Shown here one piece after another: positions 38,357 to 51,201 of a stretch of 64,000 bases of DNA; within the stretch, counting starts at the first letter, position 1, and the number at the start of each line of letters is the position of its first letter. Position numbers and translations under genes: made by a program. Source of the DNA: a virus. Under the pieces are notes generated by a model. It saw only the letters and a list, made by a program, of their open reading frames with translations, was not told where the DNA came from and ran no database searches. Location of the stretch: positions 1 to 64,000 of IMG/VR virus record IMGVR_UViG_3300032307_000370. One strand, written 5' to 3'.

Positions 38357-41300
38357 ATGGCTAATAGTAAAGTATTTGTATCACCAGGCGTCTATACTTC
38401 TGAAGTGGATTTAAGTTTTGTGGCACAAAGTGTTGGTGTTACAACTTTAGGTATCGCAGGTGAGACCTTAAAGGGTCCCGCATTCGAACCAATCTTCATT
38501 AGAAATTTTGACGAGTTCCAAACCTATTTTGGGGGAACTGTACCTGAAAAATTTGTGAACACACAAATCCCTAAATATGAGGCTGCGTATATCGCAAAAT
38601 CTTATTTACAACAATCTAATCAATTATTCGTAACGAGAATATTAGGACTTTCAGGTTATGACGCTGGTCCGTCTTGGTCAATCGTAACTACGGCAAACGT
38701 AGATTGTTCAACAATTGGTATTAATTGTTTTAGTGCAGTTACACCATCAGGATCATGTGATCCTGTATGTGTTACACCATTAGAATTACCATTTGTGGTT
38801 GATTTTACAGGATGTACTAATTCAACAACAAGTATAGATTATTTAAGTAATTTCCCACAAGAAATTCAAGATTTACTTAATGTGAGTTATGAAACACCTC
38901 AAGGTGGAACATCAACATTAGATAGTAACATTAGAGATTTAATCTTTGGTGTTATTACAAGTTCAAACCCTTTAACCGCTGAAGATACTAATATTAGTTA
39001 TTTTGGTAGTGTTGATGGTAATGATTATAGTGCGTTAACCGTAAATGGAACATATACCGCAACAACAAATGTTTATGGTGTTCCTGCAGTACCATTTGAT
39101 CAAAACACATTATGTGATGGGGCTAATACATCTTGGTATTATTCTTTATTTGATGAGGATGGTAATGGTAATTATTCTGGTTTCTCATTTTGGTCAATCG
39201 TTACAGGTGTGACAAACATTACACCAATAACAACAACCACTACGGCACCAACCACAACATCAACAACAACTAACCCTTGTGTTACTCCTGTTCCAACAAC
39301 CACAACAACTACAACAATTCCTGTACCTGTTGAGTGTTATTCAGGGTCAGTAATGGGTGTAATCTACTATTATACAGGTACATCATATACCAATTATGAT
39401 AATATGGTTGTATCAACATTCAGATCAAGAGGTATATCAACTTATGCTGATGGTAATAACCCAGTATATGAAGTACCTAATTTAAATGACGTTTCATTAA
39501 ACATGACAGGTCAATACTCAGGTGTTTTACAAAACCCATATTTACCATTTGGTGTAAATGTAACAAATAAAGATGGGGTTAACTTTAATTTTGAAGCATC
39601 ATTCTCAACATCGGACGCTCAATACCTTACTAAAGTATTTGGTACTACTAATTTTGGTAAACCAAGAAATGTAGTTCCTTTATTTGTTGAAGAAAGATTC
39701 CAAGCGTTATTAAATTATGGATGGAGAAAAGGTTTCATTAGAGGTTTAAGACCTACATTGGTTGATTTAGATTCTGCTCAAAGTAATGCTAGTGATTCAA
39801 TCGCATGGTATTTAGACAGATATCAAACACCAAGTTCACCATGGGTTGTATCTGAACTTAGAGGTACAAAAGTTTATAACTTATTTAAGTTCTACACAAT
39901 TGCCGATGGGGATGCTGCTAATTATGAAATTAAAATCTCTATTGGAAACATTTCATTCGCAAATGGCACTTTTGATGTATTCGTTCGTGATTATTATGAT
40001 ACAGATACTAATCCAGTTGTTGTGGAAAAATTCACAAACTGTAGTATGGATCCAAGTCAAAATAATTTCGTTGCTAAGAAAATCGGAACATTGGATGGAG
40101 AATTCCAACTTAATTCTACATATGTAATGGTGGAAATGAATGAAGATGCTCCTGTAGATGCATTACCTTGTGGATTTGAAGGATTTAACTTTAGAACATA
40201 CGGAACGGCAACATCACCATTCCCTGTGTATAAAACAAAATATGATTTCCCTGGTGAAGTAATATTTAACCCACCGTTTAGTGCACCAATTCAAAGTCCC
40301 GGTGATAATGTTAGAAGAACATATTTAGGTATTTCTAACAACAATAGTTGGGATGGTAACTATTTTGAATATATTGGTAAACAAAACCCTATCTCAACTT
40401 GTGATTTAGAAGGTGGTGAATGGAACTACAGATCAAAAGGTTTCCACATGGATAAAGATGCATCAGGTATTACAATTTCAGATGCATTTACAACATCAGG
40501 AACACCAAGATTTGATGTGGGTGATGCTAATTTCTCATCTGAACCAAACAACCCAACAAACCCTTACTATAGAATTTACTCAAGAAAATTCACTTTATTA
40601 GTACAAGGTGGTTTTGATGGTTGGGATATCTATAGAGAATATAGAACTAACGGAGATAGATATGTATTAGGAAGATCAGGTTACTTAAATGGTGCTTGTC
40701 CTGATAACAGATATCCGAATGCTGTTGGTTGGGGAGCATTCAAACAAATCGCTGTTGGTGATGGAACTCAAGATTTCGCAAATACTGATTACTACGCATA
40801 TTTGTTAGGTATTCAAACATTCGCAAATCCTGAAGCAGTTAACATCAACGTATTTGTATCCCCTGGTATTGACTACGTTAATAACAGTGACTTAGTAGAA
40901 GCAACAATTGATATGATTGAGAACGATAGAGCGGATTCACTTTATATTACAACTACCCCTGACTACAACCTATTCTTACCAACAACAACAGGTGGTGATG
41001 GAATGATTTATCCTCAAGAAGCGGTTGACAACTTGGAACAAACAGGAATTGACTCTAACTACACGGCAACTTACTACCCTTGGGTATTAACTCGTGATAC
41101 GGTTAACAATACTCAAATCTATATTCCAGCAACGGCTGAGGTAACAAGAAACTTGGCATTAACCGACAACATCGCGTTCCCTTGGTTCGCAGCTGCGGGT
41201 TATACAAGAGGTATCGTGAACTCAATCAAAGCACGTAAGAAGTTGACTCAAGAAGATAGAGATACTCTTTACCAAGGAAGAATTAACCCGATCGCAACCT

Positions 41301-41674
41301 TCTCTGATGTGGGTACTGTGATTTGGGGTAACAAAACTCTTCAAGTTAGAGAATCAGCACTTGATAGAATTAACGTAAGAAGATTGTTATTACAAGCTCG
41401 TAAATTGATTTCAGCGGTTTCTGTGAGATTGTTGTTTGATCAAAATGATGAACAAGTAAGACAAGATTTCTTAAACTCAGTAAATCCAATATTAGACGCT
41501 ATCAGAAGAGATAGAGGTTTGTATGATTTCCGAGTAACAGTTTCTTCAGATACTGCTGATTTAGATAGAAATCAAATGACAGGTAAGATTTACATTAAAC
41601 CAACAAGATCCTTAGAATTTATAGATATTACCTTCTATATTACACCTACAGGAGCATCATTTGAGGATATTTAA
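38357..41674 (+). CDS. 18: Contractile tail sheath protein (T4 gp18-like)
   Basis: The 1105-residue protein has both sheath hallmarks. The N-terminus is MANSKVFVSPGVYTSEVDLS then VGVTTLGIAGETLKGPAFEP. The C-terminal handshake domain reads FPWFAAAGYTRGIVNSIKAR, PIATFSDVGTVIWGNKTL, RINVRRLLLQARKLISAVSV and KIYIKPTRSLEFIDITFYI. T4 gp18 has 659 residues, so this protein carries about 450 extra in the middle. The extra part includes a Thr-rich stretch (about 287-325) similar to the linkers of the TP adhesins. The extra domains should face outward, where they could bind the cell or carry glycans. A strong terminator follows, consistent with high expression as a single gene. Confidence 0.93.
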   Translation: MANSKVFVSPGVYTSEVDLSFVAQSVGVTTLGIAGETLKGPAFEPIFIRNFDEFQTYFGGTVPEKFVNTQIPKYEAAYIAKSYLQQSNQLFVTRILGLSGYDAGPSWSIVTTANVDCSTIGINCFSAVTPSGSCDPVCVTPLELPFVVDFTGCTNSTTSIDYLSNFPQEIQDLLNVSYETPQGGTSTLDSNIRDLIFGVITSSNPLTAEDTNISYFGSVDGNDYSALTVNGTYTATTNVYGVPAVPFDQNTLCDGANTSWYYSLFDEDGNGNYSGFSFWSIVTGVTNITPITTTTTAPTTTSTTTNPCVTPVPTTTTTTTIPVPVECYSGSVMGVIYYYTGTSYTNYDNMVVSTFRSRGISTYADGNNPVYEVPNLNDVSLNMTGQYSGVLQNPYLPFGVNVTNKDGVNFNFEASFSTSDAQYLTKVFGTTNFGKPRNVVPLFVEERFQALLNYGWRKGFIRGLRPTLVDLDSAQSNASDSIAWYLDRYQTPSSPWVVSELRGTKVYNLFKFYTIADGDAANYEIKISIGNISFANGTFDVFVRDYYDTDTNPVVVEKFTNCSMDPSQNNFVAKKIGTLDGEFQLNSTYVMVEMNEDAPVDALPCGFEGFNFRTYGTATSPFPVYKTKYDFPGEVIFNPPFSAPIQSPGDNVRRTYLGISNNNSWDGNYFEYIGKQNPISTCDLEGGEWNYRSKGFHMDKDASGITISDAFTTSGTPRFDVGDANFSSEPNNPTNPYYRIYSRKFTLLVQGGFDGWDIYREYRTNGDRYVLGRSGYLNGACPDNRYPNAVGWGAFKQIAVGDGTQDFANTDYYAYLLGIQTFANPEAVNINVFVSPGIDYVNNSDLVEATIDMIENDRADSLYITTTPDYNLFLPTTTGGDGMIYPQEAVDNLEQTGIDSNYTATYYPWVLTRDTVNNTQIYIPATAEVTRNLALTDNIAFPWFAAAGYTRGIVNSIKARKKLTQEDRDTLYQGRINPIATFSDVGTVIWGNKTLQVRESALDRINVRRLLLQARKLISAVSVRLLFDQNDEQVRQDFLNSVNPILDAIRRDRGLYDFRVTVSSDTADLDRNQMTGKIYIKPTRSLEFIDITFYITPTGASFEDI
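39217..39330 (+). repeat. Thr-rich linker inside the tail sheath gene
   Basis: Encodes TPITTTTTAPTTTSTTTNPC then VTPVPTTTTTTTIPVPVEC. The composition matches the Thr/Pro linkers of region 1, and Cys residues flank it. Confidence 0.85.
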
Positions 41675-41697
41675 TCTTAAAAATGAAAAAAAATACG

Positions 41698-41726
41698 AAA
41701 AGGGAGACAAGTTCTCCCTTTTTTTA
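41698..41726 (+). terminator. Rho-independent terminator after tail sheath
   Basis: 10-bp stem AAAAGGGAGA / TCTCCCTTTT with loop CAAGT, then a T-run to 41726. It lies 24 bases past the sheath stop. Confidence 0.9.
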
Positions 41727-41735
41727 TTACCTTTG

Positions 41736-41743
41736 TATTTATA
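41736..41743 (+). promoter_or_regulatory. Late-type promoter motif TG-TATTTATA
   Basis: TATTTATA immediately after the sheath terminator and 14 bases before the ATG at 41758. This placement argues that the motif restarts transcription. Confidence 0.55.
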
Positions 41744-41757
41744 AATGTAAGAAAATT

Positions 41758-42591
41758 ATGGAACATAAACAACTTGTCAAAGAAATTATTAGTGAAATTG
41801 TCCAAGACAACTCAACTCCAGTGATGAAATATTATTCCTTTGATTGGGATGATAACCTAATGTATATGCCGACAAAAATTTATCTTTTAGATGATGAAGG
41901 TAATACGGTAGGTATGTCAACTGAGGATTTTTCCGAACACAGAACTGAAGTAGGTAAGACACCATTTAATTATAATGGTCATACAATTGTTGGGTTTCAC
42001 CCAAATGCCTTTAAGGATTTCGGAGTATTAGGTGATAGAAAGTTTTTAACCGATAGTATGGTAGCCCCAACAGGACCGGCATGGGATGATTTTGTGGAGG
42101 CGATTAATAACGGATCAATCTTTTCAATCATTACAGCAAGAGGACATACTCCATCGGCTCTTAAACAAGCGGTTTACAAATTAATTAAATCCAATAAAAA
42201 TGGAATTGATTCAAATAAATTGGTTAAAAATCTTATGAGATATAGAGATTTGGCTGACGAAGATAAACTTAATAAAGACCAACTTATACGAAGTTATTTA
42301 GATTTATGTCGTTTTCATCCGGTGTCTTTTGGTGTAAGTACTGAAACTAATCCTGAACAAGGTAAGATAAAGGCAATGGAAGATTTTATTAGATATGTAA
42401 AACAAATATCTCACCATTTACAAAAGAAGGCATTTATGAAAAACAAGATAAGTAATTATTTTACACCATATATTGGTTTTTCAGATGACGATGTAAGAAA
42501 TGTAGATACTATGAAGAAACATTTCAAAGACAAAGATGAAGATATATTACATACTTACTTAACTGCTGGAGGAATAAAAAGAAAGTATTAA
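41758..42591 (+). CDS. HAD-superfamily phosphatase-like protein
   Basis: The ATG at 41758 gives MEHKQLVKEIISEIVQ. An in-frame ATG at 41683 lies before the sheath terminator and is rejected. The 277-residue protein has HAD motif I FDWDDNLMYMPTKIYLLDD (Asp-Trp-Asp), motif II IFSIITARGHTPSALK (Thr/Ser) and a motif IV-like GFSDDDVRN. The insertion between motifs is large. The substrate is unknown; a nucleotide or phospho-protein phosphatase is possible. It sits between sheath and tube genes as its own unit, an unusual place for an enzyme. A role in tail assembly cannot be excluded. Confidence 0.75.
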   Translation: MEHKQLVKEIISEIVQDNSTPVMKYYSFDWDDNLMYMPTKIYLLDDEGNTVGMSTEDFSEHRTEVGKTPFNYNGHTIVGFHPNAFKDFGVLGDRKFLTDSMVAPTGPAWDDFVEAINNGSIFSIITARGHTPSALKQAVYKLIKSNKNGIDSNKLVKNLMRYRDLADEDKLNKDQLIRSYLDLCRFHPVSFGVSTETNPEQGKIKAMEDFIRYVKQISHHLQKKAFMKNKISNYFTPYIGFSDDDVRNVDTMKKHFKDKDEDILHTYLTAGGIKRKY

Positions 42592-42715: not shown

Positions 42716-43204
42716 ATGGCTGATTTACTGATGAAAATGCCAGTTCCGTATGAACCGAAACGCCAGAATAGATTCATACTTAGGTTTCCTAGTCCACTAG
42801 GGATTAATGAATGGTTCGTGGAAAGTGCTTCAAGACCATCAATAAAAATTGGTTCAACTGAAATACAATTCTTAAATACATCTACGTTCGTTGCTGGACG
42901 ATTTAATTGGGATCCGATCACAGTTAAATTTAGAGACCCTATCGGTCCTTCAGCGGCTCAAGCATTGATGGAATGGGTTCGTTTATGTGCTGAATCTGTT
43001 ACAGGTCGTATGGGTTATGCTGCAGGGTATAAAAAGAACATTGATTTAGAGATGTTGGATCCAACAGGTGTAGTTGTTGAAAAATGGATTTTAGAAGGAA
43101 CATTTATGACAGATGTGAATTTTGGTTCATTATCATATTCACAAGATGCTCTTGCTGACATTACGGCAACTCTTCGTATGGATAGATGTATCTTGGTTTA
43201 CTAA
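42716..43204 (+). CDS. 19: Tail tube protein (T4 gp19-like)
   Basis: The 162-residue protein matches T4 gp19 in length (163) and pattern: KRQNRFILRFPSPLGINEWF, VESASRPSIKIG, PITVKFRDPIGPSAAQALME, GYKKNIDLEMLDPTGVVVEK and DITATLRMDRCILVY at the end. It forms the rigid inner tube inside the sheath through which DNA passes. It is transcribed as a single gene between a late-type promoter motif and a strong terminator, as expected for a protein needed in many copies. Confidence 0.93.
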   Translation: MADLLMKMPVPYEPKRQNRFILRFPSPLGINEWFVESASRPSIKIGSTEIQFLNTSTFVAGRFNWDPITVKFRDPIGPSAAQALMEWVRLCAESVTGRMGYAAGYKKNIDLEMLDPTGVVVEKWILEGTFMTDVNFGSLSYSQDALADITATLRMDRCILVY

Positions 43205-43308: not shown

Positions 43309-44073
43309 ATGGAAAACGACTCAAAACAATACGGTCAAATGGATTTTAATCTACCACATGATGTGGTAACGTTACCATCTGGAGGTAAATTCTATGCCTC
43401 TAAAAAGAAAAGTGTTAAAATTGGTTATTTAACCGCCGCGGATGAGAACACACTTTTAAATATGAATCCAAATAAAACAATTAAGGAATCAATTGTTTTA
43501 CCTTTGTTAAGAAATAAGTTATATGAAACGGATCTTAGACCTGAAGAACTTTTAGATGGTGATATTGAAGCTTTATTAATCTTTTTAAGAAATACATCGT
43601 TTGGACCTGAATATGTGGTAAGTGTAATTGACCCACAAACAAATAAAGAATTTAATGCAACTATTTTACTTGATGAATTAAATATTAATAAGGTATCGGT
43701 TGAGCCTGATTCAGATGGTTATTTAACAACCACTTTACCAAGAAGTGGTTCAAAAGTAAGATTAAAGTTTCTAATAATGAGAGATACAATTGAAATTGAA
43801 AAAATTATTAGTGAATATCCTGTTGGTAGACCGGCTCCAATTGCAACATTAAGATTATCTAAAATGATTGTTGATATTGATGGTAATTCAGATAGAGGAG
43901 ATATTAATAAATTTATTGAGAATATGCCAATTATGGATTCAAAACATATTAAAAATTTCATGTCACAAAATGAACCAAGATTAGACCTTATAAAAGAAGT
44001 TATCGCCCCGTCAGGAGAAAGAGTAATGGTGAACATTGCTTTTGGGGTGGAATTTTTTCGGCCTTTCTTCTGA
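43309..44073 (+). CDS. gp26-like baseplate hub / tail-assembly chaperone, frame 0 product
   Basis: The 254-residue protein contains VTLPSGGKFYASKKKSVKIG then YLTAADENTLLNMNPN, the start of the T4 gp26-type baseplate family (PF12322 as recalled). DGDIEALLIFLRNTSFGPEY and IAPSGERVMVNIAFGVEFF follow. It lies between the tail tube and the tape measure, the usual place for the G/GT-type chaperone that coats the tape measure during assembly. The frame-0 stop at 44071 comes 15 bases after a TTTTTTCGG shift site, beyond which the +1 frame is open for 50 residues with the expected second-domain pattern. The frame-0 protein would be the major product. Confidence 0.8.
   Translation: MENDSKQYGQMDFNLPHDVVTLPSGGKFYASKKKSVKIGYLTAADENTLLNMNPNKTIKESIVLPLLRNKLYETDLRPEELLDGDIEALLIFLRNTSFGPEYVVSVIDPQTNKEFNATILLDELNINKVSVEPDSDGYLTTTLPRSGSKVRLKFLIMRDTIEIEKIISEYPVGRPAPIATLRLSKMIVDIDGNSDRGDINKFIENMPIMDSKHIKNFMSQNEPRLDLIKEVIAPSGERVMVNIAFGVEFFRPFF
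44053..44061 (+). other. Predicted +1 programmed ribosomal frameshift site TTT-TTT-CGG
   Basis: In frame 0 the codons are TTT TTT CGG. A peptidyl-tRNA on the second TTT can slip forward to TTC while the uncommon CGG codon waits in the A site. Reading then continues GGC CTT TCT TCT GAT, open to the TAA at 44210. A -1 shift would stop after about eleven codons. Confidence 0.65.
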
Positions 44074-44212
44074 TTACTCCAAATTTTTATTAGACGAATT
44101 TTATTTATTAGCAAAAATATTAAGGACATCTTATTCCGATTATTTAAAAATGCCTACATATGTGAGAAGATATCTTGTAGATAAGATTATTGAAGAACAC
44201 AAAAAAGATTAA
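44060..44212 (+). CDS. Frameshift extension of the tail-assembly chaperone (+1 frame)
   Basis: The frame encodes GLSSDYSKFLLDEFYLLAKI then LRTSYSDYLKMPTYVRRYLV and DKIIEEHKKD. There is no plausible start codon of its own before this stretch. The pattern of a helix followed by MP..VRRY....I.EE matches the C-terminal part of shifted chaperones (lambda gpGT type and gp51-like proteins). The full fusion would be 300 residues: 250 from frame 0 plus 50. Coding character is clear because the frame ends only 34 bases before the tape-measure ATG and no other gene covers the gap. Confidence 0.65.
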   Translation, partial: GLSSDYSKFLLDEFYLLAKILRTSYSDYLKMPTYVRRYLVDKIIEEHKKD

Positions 44213-44245: not shown

Positions 44246-46108
44246 ATGCTTGAAACTAATCCATCTGGAAAAGGACCCGTTAATAATATAGTTGGTACGA
44301 CTAATGCTGATCAAAGTACGTCAACTAAATTAAGTGATGAGTTATTAAATTTAGATACTACAATAACAAATTTAGGTACTTTATTTACCGATCCTTTTAA
44401 AGGAATTGGTGCGATATTAACGCAAGTAAATGAACAACTTGGACCTAAAGGTATTTTAACTGCGTTAGGAAATTTAGATGCTGAGGCAACTAAATTGGTA
44501 AAAGCGTTTGGTATTAGTAAAGAAAGGGCGGGAGAATTAACCCAAACGGTTGCTGATGCAATACCTAAGTTTGTTGAAATGGGTCTCGATGTTGGAGATG
44601 TTGGTGAAACAATGAAGACATTAGGTCAAAGTATGAATACTAACCTGATGCTTAGTAGTGATGTTCTTGCTGATTTTGCGGCAACTGCTGAAGTAACAGG
44701 TGTAAAACAATCCGATTTAGCTGTTAAATTTAGAGATGTTGGTTTTAGTATTGCTAGTGTGGGTGATCAAATGATGGATGTTGTTAAAATTGCCCAACAA
44801 GCCGGTACGACAGTTGCTGCGGTTTCTGAAGGAGTTGTTGGTAATTTAGATAAAATGAATCTTTATAATTTTGAAGGAGGGGTAAAAGGATTAGCAAAAA
44901 TGGCGGCTCAAGCTTCAAGGTTAGGTATTAATATGCAAAGTATTTTTACGGTTGTGGATAAAGTATTTAATCCTGAAGGTGCGATTGAATTTGCAGCATC
45001 ATTACAAAGATTAGGGGTAACTTCAAGTCAATTATTGGACCCATTAAGATTAATGGATTTGGCTCAAAACGACCCGACAGAACTCCAAAACCAAATTGTG
45101 AATATGACTAAAGAATTCACAAGATTCAACAAAGAAAACAATCAAATAGAAATACTTCCTGGAGCGAAAAGACGTATTGAAGAAATTGGTAAGGCAATGG
45201 GATTACCTTCAGGTGAACTACAAAAAATGGCGGTAAATGCTGGTATGTTTGAAATGAAGTTAAAACAGATTAAATTCCCAACAGATATTGTTAATAAAGA
45301 AGATAGAGAACTTATCGCAACAATGGCTCAAATTAATAAATCAGGCCAAGCGGTTGTTAGAATTGAACAAAAAGATGAAAAAGGAAGAGGTACGGGAGAA
45401 TATATAGAAAAATTAGTGAGTCAATTAAATACTGATGATGTTAAAGAGTTAGCTGAACAGCAAAAAAGTGATGCTAAGTCAATGGATGAAATTGCAAAAG
45501 ATCAATTAACAGAATTAAAAAGAATATCATCAGGTATAAATGCTTTTGTTGGGGCTGCAAAATATGGAATTGCAAGTTCTAACGTTGCACAAGAAGGTTA
45601 TGTTGGAGGATTAAGAATGTTCCAAAATATGATAAATGAAGAATTACCAAGTGAAGGTAAGAAAACGCAAAATTGGAGAACAGGAACAGATAATACTGCT
45701 GGTTATGTAAGTGATTTCATGAAAAACGCCGGACTTAGCGATCTAATGGGTACATTTACAACAAAGGCAGGTGAATATTTTGATTTATTAAAATCTCAAA
45801 TTAGTAGTTTGTTTGGTAGTGGTGGTGTGGACACCCCAAGTCCTAACCAAACTTTAATACAATCATTAAATAATCCGAATTTAAATATTTCATATGAACC
45901 AATGACTATCAGTACTGATAATAAATTCAGTGTAGATTTCAAGGTAAGTACGGATGAAAAAATAAGTGCACAGGCGGAACAAGATATAAATAAAGCTGTG
46001 TCGGACTATTTTAACGGACCTGACTCAAGAAAAAATATGGAAAATCTACTTATGAGAATTGATCAGATCAGAACATCAAGTGGACAAAAACCGATTTTCA
46101 AAAAATGA
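44246..46108 (+). CDS. Tape-measure-like tail protein (gp29 position and size)
   Basis: The 620-residue protein is close to T4 gp29 (590). It is largely helical with repeated hydrophobic stretches (GPKGILTALGNLDAEATKLV, GLAKMAAQASRLGINMQSIF) and a central region of short Ala/Gly/Val-rich helices. It ends in charged helices (DINKAVSDYFNGPDSRKNME). Position directly after the chaperone with its frameshift, and length near that of T4 gp29, are the main evidence. A length of 620 residues would predict a T4-like tail of about 100 nm. No enzymatic domain is visible. The assignment could be wrong if this is another baseplate hub component. Confidence 0.65.
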   Translation: MLETNPSGKGPVNNIVGTTNADQSTSTKLSDELLNLDTTITNLGTLFTDPFKGIGAILTQVNEQLGPKGILTALGNLDAEATKLVKAFGISKERAGELTQTVADAIPKFVEMGLDVGDVGETMKTLGQSMNTNLMLSSDVLADFAATAEVTGVKQSDLAVKFRDVGFSIASVGDQMMDVVKIAQQAGTTVAAVSEGVVGNLDKMNLYNFEGGVKGLAKMAAQASRLGINMQSIFTVVDKVFNPEGAIEFAASLQRLGVTSSQLLDPLRLMDLAQNDPTELQNQIVNMTKEFTRFNKENNQIEILPGAKRRIEEIGKAMGLPSGELQKMAVNAGMFEMKLKQIKFPTDIVNKEDRELIATMAQINKSGQAVVRIEQKDEKGRGTGEYIEKLVSQLNTDDVKELAEQQKSDAKSMDEIAKDQLTELKRISSGINAFVGAAKYGIASSNVAQEGYVGGLRMFQNMINEELPSEGKKTQNWRTGTDNTAGYVSDFMKNAGLSDLMGTFTTKAGEYFDLLKSQISSLFGSGGVDTPSPNQTLIQSLNNPNLNISYEPMTISTDNKFSVDFKVSTDEKISAQAEQDINKAVSDYFNGPDSRKNMENLLMRIDQIRTSSGQKPIFKK

Positions 46109-46152: not shown

Positions 46153-49100
46153 ATGCCAGAAAGTGTATTATCATTTGCATCATCATCGTCTTTTAGGGAC
46201 TTATTAATTGCTAGAAATTTAGCACCCTATCAAGTTCAAGGAGTATTTACTCCCCCACCTGGAAATGCGATATATGAAATTAGTCCGTTAAATGATAGTA
46301 ACGTAATAGATTCTCCTGACAATTTAATTTCTTCAAATCAATTATCAAATAATTTATACCCATTAAATCAATGGGGACCTGATGGGGGATTCCAAGGTAA
46401 ATATAGTGTTGGTAATCTAGTCCCTATTCCACCTAACGAAGGTCCATATGAACCAAACGATACTCAATTAGATTTAATAAATGAATTCTACATTGATGCA
46501 GCGTATATAACAAACATATATGGTCCCGAAGGTGGTTATAAAGATTTAGTTATAGTTACGGATGTCCAATTGGCGTCCCATTATTATTTACCATATTACG
46601 ATGGGGTACCAACAAATTATATTCCATCAACGTATAGTCCATATTCTATTTTATTTTCTGATAACCCAAGTGGTGATTTAGGGAATTTATCCCAAGATTC
46701 TTACCTTGCTAAAATAGGTGCGGTAGAATTAAAAGGTTATTTTGAAGATAGAATCGCACAAGAGTTAATCCAATTAACTTTAGGTAGTGCGAATTTAAGT
46801 AGTTTACAAGACCCTTTTAGTGCATCTATGTTAGCTACGGGTCAACAACCATTCTTCACAAAGAATTGGAAGATTACCGTACCTGAGAATCCACTATTAG
46901 CAGCTGTAAGTTTTGCTAATAGATTAACGGGAACATATTTTCCTGTATCATTTATACCTGGTGATTATTTTGATGATCCCGATCCGGTATTTTCACCACA
47001 AACAGAAAACGCATTAAATACTGTTAACAATTTAACGGGTGGTGCATTAGGTTCTGTGTTAAATAAGTTCAGAAGTCCTTCGGAGGTATTCATTGCAAAC
47101 ACGGGTAATGGACAACAATCTGTTTTATTTAAGAGTTTAGAATATAACTTATATAGACCTAACTATGACAAACCACCACTACAACAATTTACAAGTGCAA
47201 TATCCAATTTATTTGGTGTTGGACCTAATGGTGGGGGTGGATACTATGTTGGTAGTGAAGAAGCTGAACCATCACTTATAACTCAACCTGCTAATCAAGT
47301 TGCGGTTAATTATCTTGGTGTGCAACAAGGAACATTAGTTTATGGTCCTTCTGAATTAGGGAAACTTTATGAAGGTAACGAAGGTAAGATTAATTTTGGT
47401 CTACAAGCGGAATCGTATTCAAATGGTGGAGGTATAAATGGTAAATTAGTATGGACATCACCAAAATATAAAGATAATGCTGGTTTTAAAGTTGGACCGG
47501 GAGGTGATCCTAAAATCATTGATGGTGAATTTAATGAAATACAAAATTCATATAATCAAAGTTTATCCACCGATATTGAATTTAGAGGGGGATCAATTTT
47601 AGATGAAACCCAAAGAATTATTAACGCGGCTGATAACGTAACAGGTGCGGCTAGATTAAAACACGCAGGTAATGCGATGAACCAAGTTTCTAAAGTATTC
47701 AATGATGGATATAAAGAAATGACAAAAGGATCTCAAGTGATTGCTTATTATGATAGTTCAACGGGTGAGGATGTAATTGGAATTGATGGAATAGAAGTTG
47801 GTAGAGAATATTGTCGTGTGTTCCAAAAAGATACACCATATTTAACATATGCTGACTTACAGAAAACAGATGGTATTACAACATCTGGTCGTAAATTTAA
47901 TAATTCCGTTCTTGATAATACGTACAACTTAAATATTGCTCCGTTAAGGAATCCGGGATCAACAAATATTATTGATAGTAAAGTTAAGAAATATATGTTC
48001 TCATTAGAGAATTTGGCGTGGAGAACATCAGATCAACCGGGATATACCTACGATGACTTACCAACCTGTGAGAAAGGACCAAATGGAGGTAGAATTATGT
48101 GGTTTCCACCGTATGATATTTCATTTAACGAAGATGTAAGGGCATCTTGGAACCCGACTAAATTTTTGGGTAGACCTGAACCGATTTATACTTACGCTAA
48201 CACAACAAGAAGTGGTAGTTTAAGTTGGAAAATAGTTGTTGATACACCTTCAGCTATGAATACTATAATTGAAAAACAATTAGCAAATAGACCGTCAAAA
48301 GAAGTTGATTCAATAATTGATTCATTTTTTGCGGGGTGTGTTAAATATGATATATATGATTTAGCTGCTAAGTTTAATACTATTCCAACTAGTGAGTTAT
48401 ATACCTACCAACAATTATTAAATGAACCAAGATTAACTGAGGAAGAATTAGGATCAATATATTCAAATATTGGTAAGGATAAATCAACTGATATTGGTAC
48501 AAATGGTAGTGGTAACCCTGGTGGTGGGGATAGTGGTAAACCTGGTCCTGACAATCAAGAAAATGATACTCTAAATACGGATGAAACACAAAAAGTTGAT
48601 ATTGAAAGTATTCAGGAGTTTATTGATTACTCATTTTATTTTGATAATGATTATCCTGAAGGTTACACAACCAACGCAGTTACTGCAAGTCAACCATATG
48701 ATTATTGGTATAACCAATATCTTTCAGTAAAAGGGACTAAATATATAACTAACCCACCTGAATATGTTTATACAGGTAGTAAAAAATATGAAAATAAAAG
48801 TGTTGTTCAAAAGTTCTTTAATGATATTATTATTGGGAATTATCAAACAATTCAAACCGATTTTTTAAATAAATTAAAAGAAATAATTGTAGAAAAAAAT
48901 GGTACAGTTAAAATTGAATTACAAGGTTCGGCTTCCGCTCCTGCTAAAATTAATTACAATAGAAACTTATCTAAGAGAAGAATAAATTCTGTTTTACAAT
49001 GGTTTAGATCAAAAACAATTGGAGATAAAACCATATCCGCGTTAGAGGGTGAAGGAAAAATTACATTTATTGAAAATGCTAATGGTGAGGAAATTACGAT

Positions 49101-51201
49101 ACCAAAAACAAAAGATGGGGTATATGAATCGGTTACTTGTAGTGAGGACATAAGTTTAACTCCTAATGGTCCCGAAAATTCAACAGCACAATGGTACTCA
49201 ATACCGGCAATGGCTTGTAGAAGAGTTCGTTTATCAAGATTAGAAGTAAATATACCAACACCAACTACGACCACAACAACTACTGATCCGGCTCAAGGAA
49301 CTGATAAAACTGATGTAGTAACTACGGATACAACAATTAATAAAGTTGATTTAATACCACCGGGGATTAAACCTGTGAGAAAACCTGATCCAATTAAAAA
49401 GCTTAAAGAAGGTATTTCTAAAAAAATATTAAGATACTTATTTAGTGAGTGTGATTATTTTGAGGTTATAAAGGAAAATAACCCTATGGTGTATGATAGT
49501 ATTAAGGAAAAGATTAAATATTTTAGTCCGGCATTTCACTCAACAACACCTGAAGGTTTAAATGCAAGATTAACATTCTTAAACCAATGTATGAGACCGG
49601 GTCAAACAATACCTGTTATTGGACCTGATGGGAGACCAAAACATAATGATGCGTTGAATACATCATTTGGGGCTCCACCTGTATTAGTTTTAAGAATTGG
49701 TGACTTCTACCACACTAAAATCATACCAAATAGTATTGGTATTACTTATGATCCGTTAGTGTTTGATATCAACCCTGAAGGTATTGGTGTGCAACCTATG
49801 ATTGCGAAAGTTTCTTTAAATTTTGATTTTATTGGTGGTAGTGGTTTAGCTGGACCTGTGGAACAATTACAAAATGCATTATCGTTTAATTATTATGCGA
49901 ATACCGAGATTTATGATGAAAGAGCAATTGCAACTGAGGATACATCAGAGAGAGACGAAAAAGTAGTTGGTAAACTTGTCCCTTCAGCGTCAGCACCTTT
50001 AACAGTTGATAACATACCTAACGAAGTTGAAAATAGAGGAGGTCAAACTGTTGGTTCGATTATAAGTACTACTGCGAATGATGATGGAACAGTTGAAACT
50101 GGTGAGATTGATTATGACAATCTTATTCGTGAATTATCAACAGGAACAAAAGAATTCTTTTCAACGATATATAATAAGTTAAAAAGTATAAAAGATGTGA
50201 GTAATTACGGAATATTACAACTTGTTAATTTAAAAAGAAAATATTTTGATGGGGACATTAGTGAATTTCAAAACGATACCCCATTAAAAATTTATGGGAA
50301 ACCTGATAATGTTGAAAATTTAGTTAAAAATCTTGTTGATCAGGCAGTAAAAGATTGTAAAGATGATTTATCACCTGTTCTTAGGGAAATTGTTGAACCC
50401 AACTCCAATTTTAATAATGCTCAACAAAGACAAATAAGAAACAAAATGGAGGAAATTTTGGGTACGAGAAACGCTGAAATAAATAATGCGGTCATCGGAC
50501 CAATAAACGAGGCGACAAGTTATCAAGAAAATTTTAACTATACGTTTAGAAAAACAGATGTTGTTATATCAAAATTTGATGGTATACTTTTAGAAACGGG
50601 AGAACCTAAAGTTTATTCTTTGACTGGTGACAGTGCGACTACTGTAACAACTAAAATATTAGATGTTTATACAAATCAAGTTGGTAAAACAATAACAGAA
50701 TTTTTAGATGTTTTATCATCGTATTATATAATGGATTATAAATTACAATATAGTGATACTCAAAATATATGGAATCTACCGGATAGTTGGTCGAAACCAT
50801 TAGGGACAACAAAAGAAGATCAAAGGTTCTACATGGTAATGTCGGATATAATGTTAGATAATAATAAATACGATACTTTCATTGGTATTTTAACTTCATT
50901 GGATAAAATAAAATCATCTGATTCTTTGAAAAAAGAATTAAGAGATAAGTTTGATGTTTATAGAAAGAAATGTGTGGAACAAAGAGCAAATGAGGATAAA
51001 GCTTTTGCGGATTATGAATCAAGTCCCGAATACCAAAAGTTCCAAAGTTTTGAAATACTACCCTTTGAGGCTAAAGTAGGTTATACTACAAGTAAAGATG
51101 CTCTTGGGTATTCAACAGGAGTAGATAGAATTAAAAATTTATATTCTAAACAGAACTTGAATAAAGATGATAAATACAATGGTAAAGTAAAATTTAATTA
51201 A
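46153..51201 (+). CDS. Giant baseplate/tail protein with OmpA-like peptidoglycan-binding domain
   Basis: The protein has 1682 residues. The N-terminal half has structural segments such as MWFPPYDISFNEDVRASWNP followed by TKFLGRPEPIYTY, seen in tail proteins of large phages. Residues about 875-985 resemble an OmpA/MotB C-terminal domain: GTVKIELQGSASAPAKINYN, then RNLSKRRINSVLQWFRSKT, the usual Asn..Leu-Ser..Arg-Arg peptidoglycan contact pattern. A TTTTTTTD linker (nt 49257-49283) follows. Residues about 1130-1260 hold GAPPVLVLRIGDFYHTKIIP and a beta-rich block. It would form part of the baseplate and could anchor the tail to the cell wall during injection. It is followed two bases later by the gp53-like gene. 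Confidence 0.7.
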   Translation: MPESVLSFASSSSFRDLLIARNLAPYQVQGVFTPPPGNAIYEISPLNDSNVIDSPDNLISSNQLSNNLYPLNQWGPDGGFQGKYSVGNLVPIPPNEGPYEPNDTQLDLINEFYIDAAYITNIYGPEGGYKDLVIVTDVQLASHYYLPYYDGVPTNYIPSTYSPYSILFSDNPSGDLGNLSQDSYLAKIGAVELKGYFEDRIAQELIQLTLGSANLSSLQDPFSASMLATGQQPFFTKNWKITVPENPLLAAVSFANRLTGTYFPVSFIPGDYFDDPDPVFSPQTENALNTVNNLTGGALGSVLNKFRSPSEVFIANTGNGQQSVLFKSLEYNLYRPNYDKPPLQQFTSAISNLFGVGPNGGGGYYVGSEEAEPSLITQPANQVAVNYLGVQQGTLVYGPSELGKLYEGNEGKINFGLQAESYSNGGGINGKLVWTSPKYKDNAGFKVGPGGDPKIIDGEFNEIQNSYNQSLSTDIEFRGGSILDETQRIINAADNVTGAARLKHAGNAMNQVSKVFNDGYKEMTKGSQVIAYYDSSTGEDVIGIDGIEVGREYCRVFQKDTPYLTYADLQKTDGITTSGRKFNNSVLDNTYNLNIAPLRNPGSTNIIDSKVKKYMFSLENLAWRTSDQPGYTYDDLPTCEKGPNGGRIMWFPPYDISFNEDVRASWNPTKFLGRPEPIYTYANTTRSGSLSWKIVVDTPSAMNTIIEKQLANRPSKEVDSIIDSFFAGCVKYDIYDLAAKFNTIPTSELYTYQQLLNEPRLTEEELGSIYSNIGKDKSTDIGTNGSGNPGGGDSGKPGPDNQENDTLNTDETQKVDIESIQEFIDYSFYFDNDYPEGYTTNAVTASQPYDYWYNQYLSVKGTKYITNPPEYVYTGSKKYENKSVVQKFFNDIIIGNYQTIQTDFLNKLKEIIVEKNGTVKIELQGSASAPAKINYNRNLSKRRINSVLQWFRSKTIGDKTISALEGEGKITFIENANGEEITIPKTKDGVYESVTCSEDISLTPNGPENSTAQWYSIPAMACRRVRLSRLEVNIPTPTTTTTTTDPAQGTDKTDVVTTDTTINKVDLIPPGIKPVRKPDPIKKLKEGISKKILRYLFSECDYFEVIKENNPMVYDSIKEKIKYFSPAFHSTTPEGLNARLTFLNQCMRPGQTIPVIGPDGRPKHNDALNTSFGAPPVLVLRIGDFYHTKIIPNSIGITYDPLVFDINPEGIGVQPMIAKVSLNFDFIGGSGLAGPVEQLQNALSFNYYANTEIYDERAIATEDTSERDEKVVGKLVPSASAPLTVDNIPNEVENRGGQTVGSIISTTANDDGTVETGEIDYDNLIRELSTGTKEFFSTIYNKLKSIKDVSNYGILQLVNLKRKYFDGDISEFQNDTPLKIYGKPDNVENLVKNLVDQAVKDCKDDLSPVLREIVEPNSNFNNAQQRQIRNKMEEILGTRNAEINNAVIGPINEATSYQENFNYTFRKTDVVISKFDGILLETGEPKVYSLTGDSATTVTTKILDVYTNQVGKTITEFLDVLSSYYIMDYKLQYSDTQNIWNLPDSWSKPLGTTKEDQRFYMVMSDIMLDNNKYDTFIGILTSLDKIKSSDSLKKELRDKFDVYRKKCVEQRANEDKAFADYESSPEYQKFQSFEILPFEAKVGYTTSKDALGYSTGVDRIKNLYSKQNLNKDDKYNGKVKFN

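What the first reader, a model, noticed from the sequence alone, without database searches (positions are those of the whole stretch)
44041..44212. +1 programmed frameshift in the tape-measure chaperone
Frame 0 ends just after TTT TTT CGG, and the +1 frame continues for 50 well-formed residues without a start codon of its own. Most known tail chaperone shifts are -1; +1 versions are rarer. The slip TTT to TTC next to a CGG codon is mechanistically reasonable.
Basis: partly seen in the sequence, partly recalled or inferred. Interest (0 to 1): 0.75.

Follow-up and report, generated by a model that had tools for sequence, protein, structure and literature searches.

The report
Phage tail chaperone with +1 frameshift
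A tail-building helper gene of this phage carries a conserved signal that very probably makes some ribosomes slip forward one base at UUU_CGG to add a 50-residue tail to the protein; this kind of gene was known to use backward slips, and the forward-slip motif was known mainly from viruses of eukaryotes such as influenza.

Summary
The gene at 43309-44073 is a T4 gp26-type tail assembly chaperone (PF12322/phrog_150), lying after the tail tube gene. The +1 frame at 44060-44209 adds 50 residues to give a 300-residue fusion. In 44 distinct relatives (<90% nt identity) the block TTT GGG GTK GAR TTT TTT CGG CCT TTC TTC is almost invariant, the A-site codon is CGG (42) or CGC (2), and the +1 extension is under purifying selection as strong as frame 0. 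CGC and CGG are the two rarest codons of the 127-kb contig. CGG is used although AGG would encode the same residues in both frames and is about ten times commoner, which places the slip at UUU_C. Distant relatives keep a +1 site of the same type (TTY TTT CGN; TTT TGG in one clade). A second set of T4-like and jumbo phages shifts -1 at T_TTT_TTC at the same point, and T4 uses two genes (gp26, gp51). The -1 and two-gene solutions are published (Vladimirov 2022, known here only through citing papers). The +1 UUU_CGN solution appears new, so this is a new variant of a known kind. Frameshifting itself has not been measured.

The parts
43309..44073 (+). Frame-0 gene, 254 aa: short form of the tail assembly chaperone (TAC-N), T4 gp26 family
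   Evidence: PF12322 E 3.1e-9, 37.3 bits against cut-off 24.5; phrog_150 'baseplate hub' E 2.7e-13; only PF12322 copy in the 127-kb record
44044..44050 (+). G-run GGGGTGG, possible anti-Shine-Dalgarno pairing element
   Evidence: GGGGT invariant in 44 distinct loci; pairing -9.2 kcal/mol mean against -1.75 in control windows; role inferred only
44053..44061 (+). Shift site TTT TTT CGG; proposed P-site slip UUU (44056-44058) to UUC, A-site codon CGG (44059-44061)
   Evidence: TTT TTT CGG in 42 and CGC in 2 of 44 distinct loci; CGC and CGG are the rarest codons of the contig; AGG never used
44060..44212 (+). +1-frame extension, 50 codons plus TAA; with frame 0 gives a 300-aa fusion (TAC-NC)
   Evidence: Translation; dN/dS about 0.16, wrong frames no purifying signal; profile homology to extensions of -1-shifting phages
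42716..43204 (+). Tail tube protein gene upstream
   Evidence: phrog_4542 E 1.9e-26
44246..46108 (+). 620-aa ORF downstream, putative tape measure protein
   Evidence: Position only: the same place holds an annotated tape measure gene in Listeria phage LIS04; no family match

Best explanation
The gene encodes the tail assembly chaperone of a T4-related contractile phage in two forms. Most ribosomes read frame 0 and make the 254-residue short form (TAC-N). A minority, with peptidyl-tRNA-Phe on UUU (44056-44058) and the slow codon CGG in the A site, slip forward one base so that the tRNA re-pairs with UUC. They then read GGC and add a 50-residue C-terminal domain, giving the 300-residue long form (TAC-NC). 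By analogy with lambda gpG/gpGT, many short copies would coat the tape measure protein while the long form recruits tail tube subunits. Shown here: gene family, dual-frame conservation, selection on both frames, the nucleotide-level constraint on UUU_CGN, and homology of the extension to -1-shifted relatives. Inferred: the slip itself, its site within the U run, its frequency, and the chaperone role.
For: Family. Same stop and +1 ORF in close relatives. Synonymous conservation peak at the site. Purifying selection in +1. Site fixed while the frame-0 stop moves by 2 codons in 8 of 44 loci. CGG, never AGG, although both encode Arg in frame 0 and Gly in +1 and AGG is ten times commoner elsewhere in these genes. 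CGC and CGG rarest codons. UUU_CGN with +1 ORF also in SP-15/GXN1 relatives at 26-38% identity: 18 of 18 Arg codons at the site are CGN. Extension homologous to -1-shifted extensions (hhalign 99.5% over the fusion, 93% for the extension alone).
Against: No measurement of the long product. Some distant +1 relatives have other A-site codons (TGG, CAC, CAT, AGT, AAT), so CGN is not strictly required. Two LR756508 relatives (L171, L177) have an open -1 frame instead. The upstream G-run sits 6 nt, not the 3 nt of prfB, from the second UUU. The tape measure assignment rests on position.
Confidence: 0.9

Rival explanations
1. The extension is a separate small gene translated from an internal TTG in the +1 frame (44036 or 44042), overlapping the end of the chaperone gene.
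For: TTG codons lie in frame just upstream, the second one kept because TTT GGG is kept; published genomes annotate the homologous extension as its own small gene.
Against: 37 of 44 loci have no ATG/GTG/TTG in the first 12 extension codons. The rare-codon slip site, its C after UUU and the shared FF junction would be unexplained. T4 gp51 carries the extension fused in one frame.
Confidence: 0.05
2. RNA polymerase slips on the T6 run and drops one U, giving an mRNA with the fused frame.
For: Deleting one U from UUUUUUC gives the same protein sequence.
Against: T6 is short for transcriptional slippage (general knowledge). Several relatives have TTC TTT CGT, with no U run longer than three, and the same +1 arrangement. 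The CGG-over-AGG preference is a decoding feature.
Confidence: 0.03
3. The ribosome shifts at another place or by -2: on the first UUU driven by the G-run, or at TTC_TGA, or -2 on the U run.
For: The G-run is 3 nt before the first UUU, the prfB spacing; a TTC TTC TGA lies at the frame-0 end in most of the clade.
Against: The stop is 2 codons further in 8 of 44 loci while TTT TTT CGN stays. A first-UUU shift does not explain CGG instead of AGG. The -2 slip would put tRNA-Phe on AAU.
Confidence: 0.1
4. Assembly or base-call indel, or a decayed gene.
For: The window is a metagenomic virus record, and single-base indels do occur in assemblies.
Against: Same arrangement in 145 loci from many metagenomes and in isolated phages (SP-15, LIS04, GXN1, Mel-JY01), with purifying selection in both frames.
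Confidence: 0.005

Closest known systems
Tail assembly chaperones of T4-like phages (T4 gp26/gp51; Vladimirov, Gautam and Davidson 2022, doi 10.1016/j.virol.2021.11.003, known only through PMC12846349 and PMC10885494)
   Same: Same protein family and same short/long logic; the extension starts at the same FF point and is homologous.
   Different: Published frameshifting T4-like members, as cited, use -1 poly-T sites and T4 uses two genes; this clade shifts +1 at UUU_CGG from a single gene.
Influenza A PA-X and plant amalgavirus UUU_CGN +1 shift (PMC3498833, PMC5052127)
   Same: P-site UUU_C, A-site CGN, no evident downstream structure; A-site variants such as AGU also occur in both sets.
   Different: Eukaryotic ribosomes and RNA viruses; here bacterial ribosomes, a DNA phage, and in this clade an upstream G-run and the rarest codon in the A site.
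Lambda gpG/gpGT-type chaperones (PMC5009743)
   Different: Lambda shifts -1; no sequence relationship was tested here.
prfB (RF2) +1 shift, also present in Bacteroidia (PMC8710568)
   Same: +1 slip by a P-site tRNA with a slow A site and an upstream G-rich element able to pair with the anti-SD.
   Different: Sense codon instead of stop in the A site, UUU instead of CUU, spacing 6 instead of 3 nt, no autoregulation implied.

Membership tests
T4-like tail assembly chaperone (TAC) | Sequence homology to gp26/gp51 (PF12322, phrog_150) | tested here: met
   PF12322 37.3 bits, cut-off 24.5; phrog_150 E 2.7e-13
T4-like tail assembly chaperone (TAC) | Gene lies between tail tube and tape measure genes | tested here: inconclusive
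   Tail tube upstream; downstream ORF has no family match, only the position of a tape measure gene
T4-like tail assembly chaperone (TAC) | Short form plus a form with a homologous C-terminal extension | tested here: met
   Conserved +1 extension homologous to -1 extensions; as a sequence signature, product not seen
T4-like tail assembly chaperone (TAC) | -1 poly-T slippery site of the published frameshifting members | tested here: not met
   The extension is in the +1 frame in all loci of this clade
T4-like tail assembly chaperone (TAC) | Binds the tape measure protein and is absent from the virion | not testable with these tools
   Needs biochemistry and virion proteomics
T4 two-gene solution (gp26 and gp51) | A second full-length paralogue encodes the long form | tested here: not met
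   One PF12322 match in the 127-kb record; the record may be incomplete
UUU_CGN +1 shift motif (PA-X, amalgaviruses) | UUU in the P site followed by C, CGN in the A site, product in +1 | tested here: met
   TTT TTT CGG/CGC in 44 of 44 distinct loci
UUU_CGN +1 shift motif (PA-X, amalgaviruses) | No downstream RNA stimulator | tested here: met
   RNAalifold of 36 sequences gives no structure downstream of the site
UUU_CGN +1 shift motif (PA-X, amalgaviruses) | Measured low-level +1 frameshifting | not testable with these tools
   Needs a reporter assay
prfB-type SD-stimulated +1 shift | SD-like element 3 nt before the P codon and a stop in the A site | tested here: not met
   A site is CGG; the G-run ends 6 nt before the second UUU

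The most novel reading that the evidence does not exclude
UUU_CGN is a +1 slip signal that works on ribosomes of both bacteria and eukaryotes through an intrinsic property of CGN in the A site. A large clade of contractile phages has kept it at the tail chaperone junction, using the rarest CGN codon in this clade (CGG) and the commonest one in another (CGU). Phage lineages have moved between +1, -1 and two-gene solutions at one and the same protein junction.
Probability: 0.45. Interest if true: 0.72.

Novelty: new variant of a known kind. Interest (0 to 1): 0.58.

Why it matters
Backward slips dominate tail chaperones, and well-established +1 signals in bacteria are few (prfB, Listeria phage CCC_UGA). 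Here a +1 motif known from influenza PA-X and plant amalgaviruses recurs in bacterial viruses across deep divergence. The role of the CGN codon there is described as uncertain (PMC3498833), and bacterial genetics would make it easy to test. It also shows one protein junction served by three expression solutions (+1, -1, gene duplication), and it points to widespread mis-annotation: the extension is listed as a separate gene or left out in published genomes.

Tried and rejected
The gp26/gp51 paralogy as a discovery: I first thought it explained the 'T4 exception', but it is already published. A downstream RNA stimulator was sought by RNAalifold on 36 sequences and not found; a single-strand fold was unremarkable (z -1.03). 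A hairpin enclosing the slip site is conserved, but a ribosome on the site would melt it. An SD element as a general requirement was rejected: strong in this clade, absent in the SP-15/GXN1 group. A direct profile match to the single T4 gp51 sequence failed with this clade alone and appeared only with the pooled extensions (54% probability, 0 of 100 shuffles as good). The structure model was of low confidence (pLDDT 68) and only confirmed gp26-like relatives. The QdP_Psa3 scan found no relatives. The genome-contig scan gave one distant Bacteroidaceae MAG hit without a clear extension. First-pass site picking chose the stop-adjacent TTC TTC and was corrected; one pick in the TGG group (L178) remains visibly wrong there, its true site being TTT TTT TGG.

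Full report
What is there. The gene at 43309-44073 encodes 254 residues and belongs to the T4 gp26 family (PF12322 E 3e-9, above the curated cut-off; phrog_150 E 3e-13). It follows a tail tube gene (phrog_4542) and precedes a 620-residue ORF that sits where relatives have the tape measure. Frame 0 ends GVEFFRPFF*, with TGA at 44071-44073. The +1 frame gives EFF-GLSSDYSK... to TAA at 44210-44212, so the fusion has 300 residues.

It is under selection. In 22 representatives below 97% identity, codons 245-254 are the most synonymously conserved ten-codon stretch of the gene; 7e-5 of random column draws are as conserved as codons 245-252. The extension past the frame-0 stop has dN/dS about 0.16, like frame 0 (0.158), and both wrong frames show no purifying signal. 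A second scan brought the clade to 44 loci distinct at 90%. All have TTT TTT CGG (42) or TTT TTT CGC (2). The frame-0 stop is 4 codons after the A-site codon in 36 and 6 codons after it in 8. The site is fixed although the stop moves, which argues against a stop-adjacent TTC_TGA shift.

Why the slip is UUU to UUC. Given Arg in frame 0 and Gly in +1, CGG and AGG are equally good codons. AGG is about ten times commoner elsewhere in these genes (39 against 4), yet the site is CGG in 42 loci and never AGG. Only the C lets tRNA-Phe re-pair fully after a one-base slip. CGC and CGG are also the two rarest codons of the 127-kb contig (6 and 8 of 39,144), and TTTTTTCGG occurs once in it. The A site is therefore probably slow in this host. 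The P values treat related loci or columns as independent and are best read as large effects, not exact probabilities.

Relatives. Phages related at 26-38% identity (SP-15, LIS04, GXN1 and metagenomic loci) mostly have TTY TTT CGT/CGG/CGC/CGA with a +1 extension; where the A-site codon is Arg it is CGN in 18 of 18 distinct loci, against 25% elsewhere in the same genes. A sister group, including the isolated Microcystis phage Mel-JY01 and most relatives of LR756508, has TTT TGG CCT and a +1 extension beginning GL; two LR756508 relatives (L171, L177) instead show an open -1 frame. Exceptions with CAC, CAT, AGT or AAT exist. A second set (KVP40, cyanophages S-SM2 and P-SSM2, phiAS5, 121Q, CBB, RaK2, Munch, PA5oct, Atu_ph07, RAS14, XacN1) has the extension in the -1 frame at T_TTT_TTC or T_TTT_TTT, at the same FF. 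T4 gp26 ends at this point, and gp51 is a paralogue covering the rest of phrog_150 (14-235 against 13-280). The window clade's fusion profile aligns with the -1 fusions through the extension (99.5%, E 2.5e-22; extension alone 93%). In a 57-row tree the +1 phages lie together (support 90/85), with one -1 phage (LR756511) inside and QdP_Psa3, a long branch, outside.

Stimulators. In this clade GGGGT is invariant and GGGGTGG could pair with the anti-SD (-9.2 kcal/mol against -1.75 in controls), but not in the SP-15/GXN1 group. The spacing to the second UUU is 6 nt. Only 4 of 76 large ORFs have an SD-like motif upstream, against about 15% at random positions, which fits a Bacteroidota host (inference). 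F. johnsoniae keeps an SD-dependent prfB shift despite an occluded anti-SD (PMC8710568), so a role is possible but open. No separate downstream structure was found.

Prior art. The 2016 review says G-T frameshifting is conserved in long-tailed phages 'except T4' (PMC5009743). Vladimirov et al. 2022 identified the T4-like chaperones and the two-gene solution; I could not read it and rely on PMC10885494 and PMC12846349. No held paper was found that reports UUU_CGN in a phage; only open-licence papers were searchable. The motif is established for influenza PA-X and proposed for amalgaviruses (PMC3498833, PMC5052127).

Verdict. A tail assembly chaperone expressed by +1 programmed frameshifting at UUU_CGG is very likely. 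The gene family and the two-form principle are known; the +1 UUU_CGN solution and its breadth are the new part.

Noticed in passing
window 44044-44071: A predicted hairpin GGGGU.GAR[UUUU]UUC.GCCUU encloses the slip site; the variable positions of the block (-4, -1) are those that keep it, except the two CGC variants. A ribosome on the site would melt it, so its role is unclear.
   Followed up: partly
window 38357-41674: Tail sheath of 1105 aa with a long central insertion including threonine-rich runs; only its C-terminal part matches sheath families.
   Followed up: no
window 41683-42591: 302-aa ORF between sheath and tube with a phosphatase-like motif (FDWDDNLM) but no Pfam or PHROG match.
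   Followed up: no
window 46153-51201: 1682-aa tail-region protein with a weak OmpA-like match near residues 904-979, below the curated cut-off.
   Followed up: no
L064, L075, L076, L077, L078, L220: Published genomes (SP-15, KVP40, S-SM2, P-SSM2, phiAS5, Mel-JY01) list the extension as a separate small gene, sometimes named gp51 or baseplate hub assembly catalyst; it is better read as a frameshift extension.
   Followed up: yes
L203, L204, L206, L208, L209, L213: Distant +1 relatives with TTA TTT AAT CCC or a TTC AAT CCC variant instead of UUU_CGN; the slip site there is not obvious.
   Followed up: no
L171, L177: Relatives of LR756508 where the extension-like ORF lies in the -1 frame without an obvious slippery heptamer; possibly a separate start or another shift.
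   Followed up: no
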